Positions 24,556-31,064 of a stretch of 34,409 bases of DNA are shown piece after piece. The first letter of the stretch is position 1. Each line of letters begins with the position of its first letter. The stretch is from assembly GCA_028291365.1 (NCBI GenBank), contig JAQGIE010000269.1, forward strand, positions 1-34,409, written 5' to 3'. The notes beneath the pieces were generated by a model, which saw only the letters and a list, made by a program, of their open reading frames with translations, did not search any database and had not been told where the DNA came from. Both the position numbers and the translations under genes were made by a program. The DNA comes from Rhodospirillales bacterium. Its GTDB lineage: Bacteria; Pseudomonadota; Alphaproteobacteria; BOG-932; Roseiterribacteraceae.

Positions 24556-24677
24556 GCAACCCAATCTGAGTCGGGCGAACATCGAACTCGGGTCGTTCAA
24601 TATTCCAGCATTTCAGCCGGGAACTTCCGAGGGTGAACTCGCGTCTCCACAACACGTCACCGGCCGAGGAGCGCGTC

Positions 24678-25019
24678 GTGCCTGATCCCGATTTCGAAGA
24701 TTGCATCGACGCGTGCGATGATTGTGCCTCGATCTGTCTGGAGGCGCTGACCCAGCAGTGCCTGCCGGCAGGCGGTCCGCATGTCGAACCGCGCCATGTC
24801 GTGCTGATGCTCGATTGTGTCGATATCTGCCGCACCGCTGCCGACTTCATGCGGCGTGGGTCTCCGAACCATGCGCGTGTCTGCGCCGCCTGCGCCGAGA
24901 GTTGCGACGCCTGCGCTGCAAGCTGCGCCAAGCTCGACGACATGGAAGAGTGCGTCGAGGCATGCCGCGACTGCGCCGAGATATGCCGCGAAATGGCGGG
25001 GCTGCGAACGCCCGGCTGA
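24678..25019 (+). CDS. Cys-rich four-helix bundle copper-storage protein (Csp-like)
   Basis: The GTG at 24678 is preferred: GAGGAG lies 6 nt upstream and the product then begins MPDPDFEDCIDACDDC. A GTG at 24633 would add 15 unpatterned residues. The 113-residue protein has 16 Cys (9, 13, 16, 20, 28, 47, 51, 69, 72, 76, 79, 83, 92, 96, 99, 103), mostly as CxxxCxxC along helices. This is the DUF326/Csp pattern, where thiols lining a four-helix bundle bind many Cu(I) ions. There is no signal peptide, so it is cytosolic. A cueR-type regulator follows 39 bp downstream, which strongly supports a copper role. Confidence 0.9.
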   Translation: MPDPDFEDCIDACDDCASICLEALTQQCLPAGGPHVEPRHVVLMLDCVDICRTAADFMRRGSPNHARVCAACAESCDACAASCAKLDDMEECVEACRDCAEICREMAGLRTPG

Positions 25020-25058
25020 GCTTTGCTCCACGTGCAGCGCCGGGATACGCTGCACCGC

Positions 25059-25490
25059 ATGAATATCGGGGAAGCAGCAGAGGCGTCCGGCGTCTCGGAA
25101 AAGATGATCCGGCATTACGAGTCGATCGGGCTGATCGCGAAACCGGCGCGCAGCGGTGCCGGCTATCGCACCTTCGATGCGCGCAACGTGCACGAGCTGC
25201 GTTTCGTCAGCCGCGCGCGGTCGCTGGGCTTCTCGCTCGAAGAGATTCGCCGCCTGCTGAAACTATGGCGCGACGACCGGCGCAGCAGCGCCGAAGTTCG
25301 CCGCATCGCGCAAGGCCACGCCGACGAACTGGGCAGTCGCATCGAAGCAATGCGCGCGATGCAGCGCGCGCTGCTCGACCTCGTCGCCTGCTGCCGCGGC
25401 GATGCGCGTCCCGAATGTCCGATCCTCGACGACCTCGCGGCGATCGATGGCGCTCCCACCCGGCGCAAAGGCGGCGCGCCGAAACGCTAG
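25059..25490 (+). CDS. cueR: Cu(I)-responsive MerR-family regulator CueR
   Basis: A 143-residue MerR regulator starting MNIGEAAEASGVSEKMIRHYE; an upstream in-frame start would add 12 residues with no family match. The winged HTH covers 1-70 and a dimerisation helix about 75-108. The metal loop has C112 and C120 (CCRGDARPECPIL), matching the position and spacing of E. coli CueR, and S77 favours monovalent Cu(I)/Ag(I) over divalent ions. Such proteins activate promoters with a long (19-20 bp) spacer. I looked upstream of the csp gene and found no convincing CueR dyad, so the operator may be elsewhere. Confidence 0.9.
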   Translation: MNIGEAAEASGVSEKMIRHYESIGLIAKPARSGAGYRTFDARNVHELRFVSRARSLGFSLEEIRRLLKLWRDDRRSSAEVRRIAQGHADELGSRIEAMRAMQRALLDLVACCRGDARPECPILDDLAAIDGAPTRRKGGAPKR

Positions 25491-25605
25491 CCTCCGTACA
25501 ATGTTGCGAGCGGCGAATACGAACACCGCGAACCACTCGCACCAGCACTCTTCTTGCGCCGCGCGCGTGCTTCGGCCATCAAGCTGCGAAAAAGGGCAAG
25601 CAGGG

Positions 25606-26886
25606 ATGCTCCCGTTGCGGCACCGTTTGATCGTCTCCTTGGTCGTGACTGCGTGGCTCGCCGCGCTGCCGCTGCGCGCGCAGGCGCAAGCGGCCGACGA
25701 CGATTTTCGCAGCCGCCTGATGGCGCAGGGCGTCGAGCTGGGCGCGACCTACATCAACGAAGTGCTGGGCGTGGTCGATGGCGGGTACCATCGCGACGCG
25801 ATCTATGCGGGGCGGCTCGAGGCGACGCTCGATATCGATACGCAGACGCTGTTCGGCTGGGATGGCGGCCTGCTGCACGCGACCGGCTACCAGCTGCATG
25901 GGCGGGGCCTCAGCTATTGCTGCCTCAACAACTTGCTGCCGGTAAGCAATATCGAGGCGCGGCGCGCGACCCGCCTTTTCACCTTGTGGGCGCAGCAGAG
26001 TTTTGCCGGCGGCCAGGCGTCGCTGCGCGTCGGCCAGATCGCCGCCGATGACGAGTTCTTCACCAGCCGCATCGCCGTGCCGTTCATCAACGGCACGTTC
26101 GGCTGGCCCACCATCATGGTCGGCGCTACGCCGAGCGGCGGCGCCGCATTCCCGATCGCAGCCCCGGGCATGCGGTTGCGGGTCGCCGCCGACGCCAACC
26201 GCTCGATTCTCGCGGCCGTGTTCGCGGGCGATCCGGCCGGCAACTACAGCACGGTGGAGCCCGAGTTCCGCAATCGTGACGGCACCAAATTCAGCCTCAG
26301 CGGCGGCGTGCTGGCGATGATTGAAGGCCAGTACAACGTCACGCCGGACAGCGATCCGGGCCGACCGCCGGCGGCGTACAAACTCGGCCTGTGGGTGCAG
26401 ACCGGTGACCGCAAGCTCGACATGTTCGGCGACACCGGCAAGCGCGGCCCAAGCTGGGGCGCCTACGCGATCGCCGAGCGCAGGATCTGGCGCCCCAATG
26501 GCGCCGAGGGCGATACAGGGCTCAGCTTCTTCGCGCGCATCTCGGCGGGCGCGTCGGAACCGCAGCCCGTGCGCTTCTATGTCGATGCGGGCCTGTCGTA
26601 TCGCGGACCCTTCGATCGCGCCGAGGACATGCTCGGCCTCGCCTTCGCCTACAACAAACTCAGCGACACGTTGCAACGCGCCGACCGCGAGCTGGGCATT
26701 CCGGCGCGCGACGCCGAAGCGGTGATCGAGTTGACCTACCAGTTCGCCGTGGCGAGCTGGCTCATTGTGCAACCCGACCTGCAATATGTGATCCGGCCCG
26801 GCGGCGGCCTGCTCGACCCCAACATGCCGACGCGACGCATCGCCAACGCGACCGTCGCCGGCTTGCGGACGACGGTGCGCTTCTAA
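25606..26886 (+). CDS. OprB-like carbohydrate-selective porin
   Basis: A 426-residue outer-membrane protein starting at ATG 25606. The signal peptide is MLPLRHRLIVSLVVTAWLAALPLRAQAQA. The mature part has the OprB family course: RLEATLDIDTQTLFGWDGGLLHATGYQLHGRGLS, SFAGGQASLRVGQIAADDEFF, VAADANRSILAAVFAGDP, YKLGLWVQTGDR and the end VAGLRTTVRF with terminal Phe. These porins pass sugars; the substrate is unknown. A longer frame to 25402 would overlap cueR and is rejected. Its TAA stop (26884-26886) overlaps the TAG stop of the opposing gene by two bases. A copper link through the neighbouring cueR is only positional. Confidence 0.9.
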   Translation: MLPLRHRLIVSLVVTAWLAALPLRAQAQAADDDFRSRLMAQGVELGATYINEVLGVVDGGYHRDAIYAGRLEATLDIDTQTLFGWDGGLLHATGYQLHGRGLSYCCLNNLLPVSNIEARRATRLFTLWAQQSFAGGQASLRVGQIAADDEFFTSRIAVPFINGTFGWPTIMVGATPSGGAAFPIAAPGMRLRVAADANRSILAAVFAGDPAGNYSTVEPEFRNRDGTKFSLSGGVLAMIEGQYNVTPDSDPGRPPAAYKLGLWVQTGDRKLDMFGDTGKRGPSWGAYAIAERRIWRPNGAEGDTGLSFFARISAGASEPQPVRFYVDAGLSYRGPFDRAEDMLGLAFAYNKLSDTLQRADRELGIPARDAEAVIELTYQFAVASWLIVQPDLQYVIRPGGGLLDPNMPTRRIANATVAGLRTTVRF

Positions 26887-27499: not shown

Positions 27500-27790
27500 C
27501 TAGCGTGGCGCGAAGACCGGCTCGAATCCGCACGCTTCGACCTCGCAGGCGATCGCCTGCTGCAGGCTTGCGACCTGCGCGTCGTCGAGGGGCGAGCTGC
27601 GCGCCCCATCCCAGCGCGGATCGCCCGGGATCGAGACGATCAGCTTCCTGCCGCCGAAAGTCGGGTAGCAAAGCAGGGTCTTGCGGCGGCCCGCCGCCAT
27701 GCAGACGAGCTGGCTCGGCCGTTTCGCGCGCTGGAGCGCGATGGTGAAACCGGGCCGAACCGGTGCGGCGATCGGACCAACTGTCTGCAT
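27500..27790 (-). CDS. Small protein of unknown function (96 aa)
   Basis: A 96-residue soluble protein with no signal peptide. The central part (RRKTLLCYPTFGGRKLIVSIPGDPRWDGARSSPLDDAQVASLQQAIACEVEACGFEPVFAPR) has a plausible strand-turn-helix pattern and four Cys. I do not recognise a family. It diverges from the MarR-GNAT gene across 75 bp, and the perfect dyad at 27849-27865 lies in that gap, so the two may be co-regulated. The ATG has no strong ribosome-binding site, which leaves the start uncertain. Confidence 0.6.
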   Translation of the reverse strand: MQTVGPIAAPVRPGFTIALQRAKRPSQLVCMAAGRRKTLLCYPTFGGRKLIVSIPGDPRWDGARSSPLDDAQVASLQQAIACEVEACGFEPVFAPR

Positions 27791-27848
27791 GTCCGTCGCG
27801 AACGCCAGGGTCCGACTGTAGTTCCGGTCTGGACTCCGGCAAGCGATC

Positions 27849-27865
27849 GGTTGACGCTGTCAACC
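27849..27865. promoter_or_regulatory. Perfect dyad at the MarR-GNAT start, operator candidate
   Basis: GGTTGACGCTGTCAACC has perfect 7-bp arms and a 3-bp spacer and ends on the base before the ATG at 27866. MarR proteins usually bind such dyads and repress their own genes, so autoregulation is likely. The 96-residue gene diverges 58 bp away and may share it. Confidence 0.65.
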
Positions 27866-28804
27866 ATGGCTCGCACCAGGACCGCCCTCGCCGATCGCGA
27901 CGTCGCCGAACTTCGCCGCTTCAATCGCTGGTGGACGCGCCGCATCGGCGCGCTCGACGCCAAGCATCTCGGCACCGACTTTTCGTTAGCGGAGTCGCGG
28001 ATCCTGTATGAGCTCGCGCATCGCGAACGACCCAGCGCCAGCGAGCTGGCGAGCGCGCTCGACCTCGACGCCGGCTATCTCAGCCGCATCCTGCAGCGCT
28101 TCCGCAACGACGGGTTGCTCGACCGCGTCACGTCGGACGCGGATTTACGACGGCAGCACCTCGCGCTCACCGAACGCGGCCGCGCCGCGTTCGCACCGCT
28201 CGACCAGCGCGCGCGCGACGCGATGGCAAGCCTGCTGGCGCCGCTGGAGCAGGACGGGCGTGAACGGTTGCGCGCAGCGTTGCGCGATCTCGAACATCTG
28301 CTCGGCGAGCGCAAGCCGGAGGCCGCGCCGTACATGCTGCGCCCGCCCGCGCCGGGCGATCTCGGCTGGGTAGTGCAGCGGCACGGCGCGCTCTACGCCG
28401 CGGAATATGGCTGGGACGTGCGGTTCGAGGCGCTGGTGGCCGAGATCGTCGCGGGCTTCGGCACGCAGCATGATCCCGCGCGCGAGCGTTGCTGGATCGC
28501 CGAGCGCGACGGCGTGCCCGTCGGCAGCATCTTTCTGGTGCGCAAATCGACGACCATGGCGCAGCTTCGGCTGCTGCTCGTCGAACCAGGCGCGCGCGGC
28601 TCCGGCATCGGCGCGCGGCTGGTCGAGGAATGCGTGCGCTTCGCGCGGCAGGCCGGCTACAAGCGCATCCAGCTATGGACCAACGACGTGCTGAAATCGG
28701 CGCGGCGCATCTATGAAGACGCCGGTTTCAACCTCGTCGAATCGAAAGCGCATACCAGCTTCGGCAAGAAGCTCGTGGCGCAGACCTGGGAAATGAAACT
28801 CTAG
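27866..28804 (+). CDS. MarR-family regulator fused to a GNAT acetyltransferase
   Basis: A 312-residue bifunctional protein. Residues 10-150 form a MarR winged helix (FSLAESRILYEL, SASELASALDLDAGYLSRILQRFRNDGLL and the wing DLRRQHLALTERG). Residues 157-305 form a GNAT domain whose acetyl-CoA loop is RGSGIG at 244-249; YEDAGFN near 283 is the usual C-terminal motif. MarR-GNAT fusions are a known architecture, but the acetyl acceptor and ligand are unknown. The ATG directly abuts the 27849-27865 dyad, leaving no room for a Shine-Dalgarno, so the message may be leaderless. Its TAG stop overlaps the opposing TAG (28801-28803) within CTAG. Confidence 0.92.
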   Translation: MARTRTALADRDVAELRRFNRWWTRRIGALDAKHLGTDFSLAESRILYELAHRERPSASELASALDLDAGYLSRILQRFRNDGLLDRVTSDADLRRQHLALTERGRAAFAPLDQRARDAMASLLAPLEQDGRERLRAALRDLEHLLGERKPEAAPYMLRPPAPGDLGWVVQRHGALYAAEYGWDVRFEALVAEIVAGFGTQHDPARERCWIAERDGVPVGSIFLVRKSTTMAQLRLLLVEPGARGSGIGARLVEECVRFARQAGYKRIQLWTNDVLKSARRIYEDAGFNLVESKAHTSFGKKLVAQTWEMKL

Positions 28805-29247: not shown

Positions 29248-30150
29248 TCAGATCGAAGCCTTGCTTGCGGCCCTGCGGCCGAGCGCGCCCGACGCCAACG
29301 GAACGCCAAGGCTGATCAGGATCGTGCCGGCCCATTCGATCGGCGTCGGCACTTCGCCCAGGATCGGGATGGCCGCCAACAGCGTCAGCACCGGAACCAG
29401 CGATGCAAACGGCGCCAGACGCGCTGGCCCCAGCAGCGCCAGCGCGCGGTTCCAGCCGATCAGCGCCAGCAACGAAACGATCGCGCCTTGATAGACCGCC
29501 TGGAACAGCACCGACTGCAGCGACGCCTCGAACAAGGTCGGGTGCAGGAACAGCACATAGACCGGCAGGTAGAAGGCTGCCGACAACACCGAAACGATCG
29601 CGGTCGCATGCAGCGACGACAGGCCGGCGCGCCGGTTCACCAGCGAGTACATCGCGTACATCGCCGACGCCGACAGCAGCAGGATCTGGCCGAACAATTG
29701 GGACGAGGATTGGCCGATTCCTTCAACGCCGACGATCGCAGCGGCGCCGAGAAAGATCAGCGCCAGTCCGACGCCGTGCCAACGCGACGGGCGTTCGCCG
29801 AGAAACACGGCGCCGAGCAGCGTCACCCACAGCGGCAGCACGCCGGCAATCAGCGCGCCGCCTTGGCCCGCGGGCGCCAGGCTCAACCCGCCCGCTGCAA
29901 CCAGCACGTAGGGCGCGCCCGCGGTCGCCGCGAGCACCAGCACGGTGCCGAGTCCCAATCTTCGTACCGCCAAACCCTGGCGCAGCACGATCGGCAACAT
30001 GACCAGCGCCGCGACTGCGAACCGCACTGCGACGAGATCGAACACGCTCATCGATCGCGTCACGCCGAAGCGCGTCGCGATCTGCCAGCTCGCCCACAGA
30101 AAAATGGTGAAGACGGCCCAGGCGATTCCGAGCCAGAGCTGCTTCTTCAT
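29248..30150 (-). CDS. EamA-family (DMT) transporter, second of a tandem pair
   Basis: A 300-residue inner-membrane protein with about 10 helices and two EamA repeats. It begins MKKQLWLGIAWAVFTIFLWASWQIATRFG. Recognisable pieces are GGALIAGVLPLWVTLLGAVFLGERPSRWHGVGLALIFLGAAAIVG and LAPFASLVPVLTLLAAIPILGE. Such carriers export metabolites or amino acids; the substrate is unknown. The ATG overlaps the TGA of the upstream EamA gene as ATGA, so translation is coupled. The frame continues open upstream but only as shadow of the partner gene. It is close in sequence to that partner. Confidence 0.9.
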   Translation of the reverse strand: MKKQLWLGIAWAVFTIFLWASWQIATRFGVTRSMSVFDLVAVRFAVAALVMLPIVLRQGLAVRRLGLGTVLVLAATAGAPYVLVAAGGLSLAPAGQGGALIAGVLPLWVTLLGAVFLGERPSRWHGVGLALIFLGAAAIVGVEGIGQSSSQLFGQILLLSASAMYAMYSLVNRRAGLSSLHATAIVSVLSAAFYLPVYVLFLHPTLFEASLQSVLFQAVYQGAIVSLLALIGWNRALALLGPARLAPFASLVPVLTLLAAIPILGEVPTPIEWAGTILISLGVPLASGALGRRAASKASI

Positions 30151-31064
30151 GCGGGCCGGTCGAGTGCGCCGGTCGCCAGCGGCACGCCGCAGCTGATCAG
30201 CAACGTGCCGATCCATTCGGCCGGGGTTGGACTCTCGCCGAGCGCGGGAATTGCCGCGAGCAGCGCCAGCACCGGCGCCAGTGCCGCAAACGGCGAGGCG
30301 CGCGAGGGGCCGAGCAACTCGACCGCGCGATTCCAGGTCAGCATCGCCAGCACGCCGGCGAACGCACCTTGATAGAGGGCGTGGAAGAAGACGCCGTCGA
30401 TCGGCATCGCCGGCAGCGACGGATGCAGGAACAGCACGTAGATCGGCAGATAGAAGATCGCCGACAAGGACGAGACGATCGCAACCGCATGCATCGCCGT
30501 CAGGCCCGAACCGCGCAAAATCACCGTGTAGATGGCCCACATCAGCCCGGCTGCGATCAGCAGCGCCTGGCCCAGCAGACGTTCGCTGCTGCCTCCGAGA
30601 CTTTCAAAGCCGACGATCGCCAGCGCGCCCATGAAGATCATCGCCAGTCCGATCTGGCGCGGACGCGACGGGCGCTCGCCGAGAAACATGATGCCGAGCA
30701 GTGCCACCCATAGCGGCATCACACCCGGCGTCAGCGCACCGCCCTGCGCCGCCGGGGCGAGGCTGAGACCGCTGACGCAGACGAGCAGATAGGGCGCGCC
30801 CGCGCCCGCCACCAAGGCCAACACGCGCGCCGCGCCGAGACGCGCGAAACCGAAGCCATGCCGCAGCACGATCGGGAAGGTCAGGATGGCGGCGGTGCCG
30901 AAGCGCAGCGCCACCACGTCGGTCGGCTTCAGCGAATGCAGCACGCCAAGCCGCGTCACGATGAACCACGAGCCCCAGATCGAGACGGTAAACAAGGCCA
31001 GCGCGACGCCTGCCGCGACTCGTTTCCTGTCGGTCGTCGATCCTTCCCGCTGCATGCTGCTCAT
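30147..31064 (-). CDS. EamA-family (DMT) transporter, first of a tandem pair
   Basis: A 305-residue, 10-helix inner-membrane protein. It starts MSSMQREGSTTDRKRVAAGVALALFTVSIWGSWFIVTRLG; an ATG 9 bp downstream is an alternative. It aligns almost without gaps with its neighbour: for example GGALTPGVMPLWVALLGIMFLGERPSR here against GGALIAGVLPLWVTLLGAVFLGERPSR there, and LPIYVLFLHPSL against LPVYVLFLHPTL. The pair therefore arose by tandem duplication. Upstream lies a repeat and then the acnA terminator, so the pair probably has its own promoter. Confidence 0.9.
   Translation of the reverse strand: MSSMQREGSTTDRKRVAAGVALALFTVSIWGSWFIVTRLGVLHSLKPTDVVALRFGTAAILTFPIVLRHGFGFARLGAARVLALVAGAGAPYLLVCVSGLSLAPAAQGGALTPGVMPLWVALLGIMFLGERPSRPRQIGLAMIFMGALAIVGFESLGGSSERLLGQALLIAAGLMWAIYTVILRGSGLTAMHAVAIVSSLSAIFYLPIYVLFLHPSLPAMPIDGVFFHALYQGAFAGVLAMLTWNRAVELLGPSRASPFAALAPVLALLAAIPALGESPTPAEWIGTLLISCGVPLATGALDRPA

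What the first reader, a model, noticed from the sequence alone, without database searches (positions are those of the whole stretch)
27849..27865. Perfect 17-bp dyad ending at the start codon of a MarR-GNAT fusion
GGTTGAC-GCT-GTCAACC abuts the ATG. A repressor bound there would block transcription or initiation, and the position leaves no space for a ribosome-binding site, implying a leaderless message. The divergent 96-residue gene may be a co-regulated target and hence a clue to the enzyme's substrate.
Basis: partly seen in the sequence, partly recalled or inferred. Interest (0 to 1): 0.5.

Follow-up and report, generated by a model that had tools for sequence, protein, structure and literature searches.

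The report
Self-repression switch of a repressor-enzyme fusion
The palindrome is most likely where a fused repressor-and-acetyltransferase protein shuts off its own gene, and the same switch with its built-in promoter sits in front of related genes in distantly related bacteria, which makes the unknown trigger of this enzyme straightforward to look for.

Summary
The dyad is real (27849-27865; ATG at 27866). As a bare dyad it is not rare, but it is the genome's only perfect TTGAC-N3-GTCAA. Upstream of 87 orthologues, 59 carry that core with at most one mismatch (shuffles: 0.27), under eight phylum labels; in a second sample, all Pseudomonadota, 24 of 29 do. It is half of a tandem operator: the consensus TAGTTGAC-N3-GTCAACTA occurs twice, 21 bp apart; the window's upstream copy (27827-27845) is degenerate. 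A promoter is embedded: -35 in site 1, 17-bp spacer, -10 (NAnnnT) inside site 2. In 26 of 73 non-redundant loci, the window included, a start codon lies 4-9 nt after the -10, so a leaderless message is likely here. Ten GNAT-only relatives lack the operator. Most likely the MarR-GNAT fusion represses its own promoter and little else, and a ligand, probably the enzyme's own amine substrate (inferred), lifts repression. The divergent 96-residue gene is real but genus-restricted, so it says little about substrate; an EamA exporter directly downstream in some relatives is a better clue. Binding, transcription start and ligand are untested. My literature searches found no description of this operator.

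The parts
27849..27865 (.). the reported perfect dyad, core of operator site 2
27848..27866 (.). operator site 2 (19-mer of the matrix, 18.8 bits), covers the proposed -10 and the first base of the ATG
27827..27845 (.). operator site 1, degenerate (-0.7 bits), exactly 21 bp upstream of site 2, contains the proposed -35; conserved block in the same-genus orthologue
27830..27835 (+). proposed -35 element TGGACT (weak)
   Evidence: inferred from the family register
27853..27858 (+). proposed -10 element GACGCT (weak; A2 and T6 kept)
   Evidence: inferred from the family register
27866..28804 (+). MarR-GNAT fusion gene, 312 aa, start codon 7 nt after the proposed -10
27866..28306 (+). MarR winged-helix half (residues 1-147; modelled recognition helix 69-81)
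28328..28801 (+). GNAT half (about residues 155-312)
27500..27790 (-). divergent 96-aa gene, genus-restricted, no family found; possible co-regulated gene

Best explanation
The dyad is the promoter-proximal half of a tandem operator through which the MarR-GNAT fusion represses its own gene. Two palindromes lie 21 bp apart (two helical turns, so presumably two dimers on one face of the DNA). Site 1 holds the -35, site 2 holds the -10 and reaches the start codon, so bound protein would exclude RNA polymerase. Transcription most likely starts at or next to the A of the ATG, giving a leaderless mRNA. The regulon is essentially this one gene, plus perhaps the divergent 96-aa gene here and a downstream EamA exporter in some relatives. 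Inferred further: a ligand, most simply the amine that the GNAT domain acetylates, releases the repressor; more enzyme is made, the ligand is consumed and repression returns. Shown by sequence: operator conservation, 21-bp pairing, promoter register, start-codon distance, absence with the MarR domain. Inferred: binding, repression, transcription start, ligand.
For: 59 of 87 orthologues with at most 1 mismatch, shuffles 0.27, none perfect in 592 control windows; second sample 24 of 29, and 15 of 18 after removing near-copies, none over 80% identical to the first set. All 35 pairs above both cut-offs exactly 21 bp apart; 14 of 16 in the second sample. NAnnnT at the -10 register in 55 of 73, and in 26 of 39 where site 2 is weak against 0-3 at twelve other registers. 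Third centre base T in 27 of 31 site 2 against 6 of 31 site 1. Start codon 4-9 nt after the -10 in 26 of 73, 19 of them without another candidate. Site of 10 bits or more in 73 of 79 fusions, 3 of 829 control windows, 0 of 10 GNAT-only loci. Recognition helix and wing nearly invariant in 77 proteins.
Against: No binding, transcription or ligand data. The window's site 1 is degenerate and both promoter boxes are weak. 58 of the first-set sites trained the matrix. 6 of 79 fusions lack a 10-bit site and two loci of the second sample have none (L171 and L174). Natural TTGAC/TTGCC variation of the operator is not matched by a clear change in the recognition helix; only a conservative I/L difference at residue 75 ranks ninth, and relatedness was not controlled. 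Over all 73 loci the register at -7 also scores 20, inside the palindrome. Six of the ten GNAT-only loci are distant (31-42%).
Confidence: 0.78

Rival explanations
1. The dyad is the operator of another, unlinked repressor; the fusion protein binds elsewhere.
For: Sequence alone cannot name the binder; no binding data exist.
Against: The site goes with the MarR half: 73 of 79 fusions have it, 0 of 10 GNAT-only loci. In 46 genomes the full consensus has 47 places, 28 of them the gene's own site (matched by letters, counted by eye), reversed control 57, so there is no wider regulon of another factor.
Confidence: 0.12
2. The dyad acts as RNA: a 7-bp hairpin just before the start codon that tunes translation or decay.
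For: The transcribed strand could fold into a 7-bp stem if transcription began upstream of it.
Against: Letters, not only pairing, are conserved: the ten core positions keep their letter in 83-98% of symmetrised training sites (training sites were chosen by the core, so this is an upper estimate). The sites come in pairs at 21 bp, a helical spacing, and lie at varying distance from the start codon. No Rfam family in the window.
Confidence: 0.05
3. The protein binds the site but activates its own gene or, chiefly, controls the divergent 96-aa gene.
For: The divergent gene is conserved in the genus and the gap is only 75 bp, 39 of them under the operators.
Against: The sites cover -35 and -10 of the fusion gene's own promoter, a repressor position; the 96-aa gene is in 2 of 385 class genomes, own included, while the operator is family-wide.
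Confidence: 0.04
4. The dyad is a chance palindrome.
For: Nine perfect 7+3+7 dyads occur in the window, shuffles 1-6.
Against: Conservation in 59 of 87 and 24 of 29 orthologues and exact 21-bp pairing.
Confidence: 0.01

Closest known systems
CrtR of Corynebacterium glutamicum, MarR family (PMC5401885; passages read)
   Same: MarR-type autorepressor with perhaps a single genomic site; its own transcript is reported leaderless; site overlaps promoter elements
   Different: Stand-alone regulator without enzyme domain; main target is a divergent crt operon; different motif (TTAA); isoprenoid pyrophosphates as ligands (title and passages)
Typical MarR operators (statement in PMC5401885: palindromes of 16-20 bp often overlapping -10 and -35)
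   Same: Palindrome size and promoter overlap
   Different: Here two sites at fixed 21 bp with both promoter boxes embedded, recognisable under eight phylum labels
Enzyme-repressor fusions such as PutA or BirA (recalled, no call)
   Same: Enzyme and autorepressor in one polypeptide
   Different: Different DNA-binding and catalytic domains; their ligands are known
Proteins annotated 'bifunctional helix-turn-helix transcriptional regulator/GNAT family N-acetyltransferase' or 'helix-turn-helix domain-containing GNAT family N-acetyltransferase'
   Same: Same architecture; plasmid relatives at 40-54% identity carry these labels where annotated
   Different: No operator, ligand or substrate found in the papers searched

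Membership tests
MarR family regulator | MarR winged-helix domain | tested here: met
   Pfam MarR_2 39.5 bits (cut-off 27), MarR 33.1 (24.6); model helices and wing
MarR family regulator | dimer binding to a palindromic operator | not testable with these tools
   conserved palindrome found; dimer and binding not tested
MarR family regulator | release by a ligand | not testable with these tools
   -
GNAT acetyltransferase | GNAT fold and acetyl-CoA loop | tested here: met
   Pfam Acetyltransf_1 56.7 bits (cut-off 20.7); Foldseek top 50 all acetyltransferases; R244, G247, G249 conserved, (loop motif recalled)
GNAT acetyltransferase | acetylation of a substrate | not testable with these tools
   -
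Autogenous operator | site conserved before orthologues | tested here: met
Autogenous operator | site absent where the DNA-binding domain is absent | tested here: met
   0 of 10 GNAT-only loci
Autogenous operator | operator letters change together with recognition-helix residues | tested here: inconclusive
   only I75/L, rank nine; 31 against 12 loci, relatedness not controlled
Leaderless gene | -10 element about 5-9 nt before the start codon, no Shine-Dalgarno motif | tested here: met
   7 nt in window and L006; the bases before the ATG are the dyad
Leaderless gene | transcript begins at the start codon | not testable with these tools
   -
RNA hairpin regulator | pairing conserved while letters vary | tested here: not met
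   letters conserved; no Rfam match

The most novel reading that the evidence does not exclude
The fusion gene with its 40-bp operator-promoter is a portable one-gene sense-and-detoxify module: repressor, the enzyme that destroys the inducer, promoter and operator travel together between phyla and need no host factor beyond RNA polymerase and ribosomes, the leaderless form not even a ribosome-binding site.
Probability: 0.35. Interest if true: 0.7.

Novelty: new variant of a known kind. Interest (0 to 1): 0.5.

Why it matters
An operator readable at letter level in orthologues under eight phylum labels is unusual, since regulatory sites normally drift fast (general knowledge). It gives a direct assay for an enzyme of unknown substrate: put the 40-bp operator-promoter before a reporter and look for compounds that switch it on; the inducer should point to the substrate. 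It also offers a compact repressor-operator pair and a natural series for comparing leaderless and leadered versions of one promoter.

Tried and rejected
Divergent gene as a family-level target: rejected, genus-restricted. Wider regulon: not supported (47 places in 46 genomes at up to 2 mismatches, at most 3 per genome, control 57; 14 of the 46 have none at that stringency, the window's genome among them). One string recurring in 7 of those genomes lies, in the one checked (L136), in the tmRNA gene. Operator/helix covariation: inconclusive. The window dyad as site 1 (a -35): rejected by eye; transcription would start inside the gene with no in-frame start before the conserved domain, and the hexamer 23 bp on lacks T6. 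Substrate from fold: generic GNATs only. Conserved neighbours: apart from EamA none recurrent; the largest BLAST cluster (20 loci, 12 shown) was discarded because the rows shown are mostly minus-strand frames overlapping or abutting the gene itself; upstream neighbours diverse. One search read four minus-strand loci (L007, L008, L011, L012) in the wrong orientation; one search corrected this and later counts use the correction. One search's Shine-Dalgarno control used one start per locus where the count used all; redone with the same starts.

Rows left out: L014 and L015 (29% identical fusions) from all operator counts; 9 of 88 loci as 80% or more identical; 6 of those 79 without a 10-bit site are outside the promoter counts; 29 of 39 matching other genomes were examined (locus cap), 4 of the other 10 being GNAT-only and used; L093 (frame stops early) and L112 not in alignment A3; A4 also omits L006-L012, L089, L102; 3 of 78 upstream neighbours not sent to Pfam.

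Full report
The observation. GGTTGAC-GCT-GTCAACC stands at 27849-27865 and the ATG of a 312-residue MarR-GNAT fusion follows at 27866. A perfect 7+3+7 dyad is not rare in this window: there are nine, against 1-6 in ten shuffles. The case rests on sequence and relatives. In the 4.37-Mb genome it is the only perfect TTGACNNNGTCAA listed and the only full match to GGTTGACNNNGTCAACC (16 places with up to 2 mismatches, reversed control 10).

Orthologues. The protein scan kept 80 loci from named genomes (capped at 80 of 330) and a class-wide sample gave seven more full-length relatives (L006-L012). In about 121 bases upstream the best match to TTGACNNNGTCAA has 0 mismatches in 31, 1 in 28, 2 in 14, 3 in 7 and 4 in 7 of 87; shuffles give 0, 0.27 and 3.45 for 0, 1 and 2, and none of 592 windows elsewhere in the same loci is perfect. 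A matrix from 58 of these sites, window and L006 left out, reads TAGTTGAC-WNW-GTCAACTA. Sites with at most one mismatch occur under seven phylum labels besides Pseudomonadota: Gemmatimonadota 8 of 9, Acidobacteriota 4 of 4, Actinomycetota 4 of 6, Myxococcota 3 of 3, Chloroflexota 2 of 4, Cyanobacteriota 1 of 1, Bacillota 1 of 1; Thermomicrobiota 0 of 1 (labels, which follow submitters' titles, many of them metagenome bins).

Second sample. In a phylum-wide draw 40 of 398 genomes match at 1e-50, own included, four of them by the GNAT half only. The 29 new full-length loci examined give 24 with at most one mismatch. None is 80% or more identical to the first set; after removing near-copies it is 15 of 18. 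All are Pseudomonadota, so the cross-phylum claim rests on the first set. L171 and L174 have no site.

Tandem sites. In the first set all 35 pairs above both cut-offs are exactly 21 bp apart, and in 56 of 88 loci the second-best site lies 21 bp from the best; in the second sample 14 of 16. In the window and L006 the second-best site is also exactly 21 bp upstream, though degenerate (-0.7 and 0.2 bits), and it is a conserved block in their alignment while the DNA just upstream of it has an indel.

Embedded promoter. If the TTGAC of site 1 belongs to the -35, the hexamer after a 17-bp spacer falls inside site 2. Of 73 non-redundant loci with a site of at least 10 bits, 55 have A at its position 2 and T at position 6; where site 2 is not palindromic (under 5 bits) 26 of 39 still do, against 0-3 at the twelve other registers tested. 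Over all 73, the next best register, at -7 and thus inside the palindrome, scores 20. The third centre base of site 2 is T in 27 of 31 pairs, of site 1 in 6 of 31. Second sample: 18 of 27. For the window this predicts TGGACT (27830-27835), 17 bp, GACGCT (27853-27858), both weak.

Leaderless start. In 26 of 73 loci an ATG or GTG lies 4-9 nt after the -10, 7 nt in both window and L006; 19 of the 26 have no other ATG/GTG candidate, 44 loci have only other distances and 3 none. ATG distances pile up at 5-9 (25 of them), one each at 10 and 12, none at 13-17, then resume at 18. Of the 44, 25 have a Shine-Dalgarno-like motif against 10.7 for shuffled letters at the same starts. So the leaderless inference fits this locus but not the whole family.

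Who binds. Of 79 non-redundant fusions 73 have a site of 10 bits or more, against 3 of 829 control windows; 10 of 10 GNAT-only loci have none within 250 bp upstream (best -2.2 bits): four at 55-58% identity over the GNAT and six at 31-42%, the latter perhaps only distant kin. D68, G70, Y71, S73, R74 around the modelled recognition helix (69-81) and D93, R95 of the wing are each kept in at least 74 of 77 proteins. Against: TTGAC/TTGCC variation of the operator is not matched by a clear change there; the best helix column is a conservative I/L at 75, ninth overall, and kinship was not controlled.

Regulon. In 46 genomes the full consensus with up to 2 mismatches has 47 places, at most 3 per genome, in 32 genomes, reversed control 57. 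By matching letters, counted by eye, 28 are the gene's own site, 7 are one repeated string that in the one case checked is in the tmRNA gene, 12 are scattered. The design looks like a regulon of one. The recurrent extra is an EamA-type exporter directly downstream: 10 of 79 loci by clustering, three of them as frames whose called start lies inside the fusion gene, and 7 of 24 co-directional neighbours within 400 bp by Pfam. Upstream neighbours are diverse, the commonest family in 3 of 75.

Divergent gene. The 96-residue frame is 76% identical and also divergent in a same-genus genome but in only 2 of 385 class genomes, own included, and matches no Pfam or NCBIfam family at E 0.1. The operators take up 39 of the 75-bp gap, so co-regulation is plausible; it does not identify the substrate.

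Structure and kin. AlphaFold2 gives a confident MarR winged helix and GNAT domain with a poor link (mean pLDDT 91.3, pTM 0.59); dimer and domain orientation are not predicted. Foldseek lists acetyltransferases of many kinds. The protein tree mixes phyla (21 label changes for 9 groups, least possible 8, shuffled mean 28.0; starred branches force at least 3 for Pseudomonadota and 3 for Gemmatimonadota), but many forks are weak, the bootstrap had not settled and the tool warns that this is no proof of transfer. Twenty-two plasmid records carry a relative, 20 of them over most of its length.

Mechanism and standing. Shown by sequence: a conserved tandem operator merged with the promoter and tied to the MarR domain. 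Inferred: two dimers excluding polymerase, and release by a ligand that the GNAT domain removes. In kind this is MarR autorepression combined with the enzyme-repressor logic of PutA or BirA (recalled); CrtR (passages read) is the nearest described single-site MarR autoregulator with a leaderless transcript. Eight searches of open-licence PMC papers listed none that I recognised as describing operator, ligand or substrate of such fusions; beyond listings I read passages of two papers. Interest is moderate: strong evidence for an ordinary class of circuit in an unusually well conserved and directly testable form.

Noticed in passing
window 29248-31064, minus strand: Two neighbouring EamA-type transporter genes lie a few hundred bases beyond the fusion gene in convergent orientation; EamA genes also recur directly downstream of orthologues, but no operator copy was found here.
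   Followed up: partly
L136 1501-1519: TAGTTGCCAACGACAACTA, which recurs in 7 alphaproteobacterial genomes, lies in the tmRNA gene in the one locus checked; a trap for operator scans.
   Followed up: yes
L177-L180: Four genomes have a GNAT 55-58% identical to the window's GNAT half but without the MarR half and without operator; domain loss or the unfused ancestor.
   Followed up: partly
L131 (G129 C117:19288-19306): A myxobacterial genome has a second near-consensus site away from its known fusion gene; a paralogue or a true second target is possible.
   Followed up: no
L015 1300-1402: A 29% identical fusion has TAGTTGCATAAAGCAACTT upstream, close to the TTGC variant of the operator, so the operator code may be older than the set studied.
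   Followed up: no
window 24633-25019 and 25023-25490, plus strand: A cysteine-rich DUF326 protein followed by a MerR-type regulator, then an OprB porin at 25402-26886.
   Followed up: no
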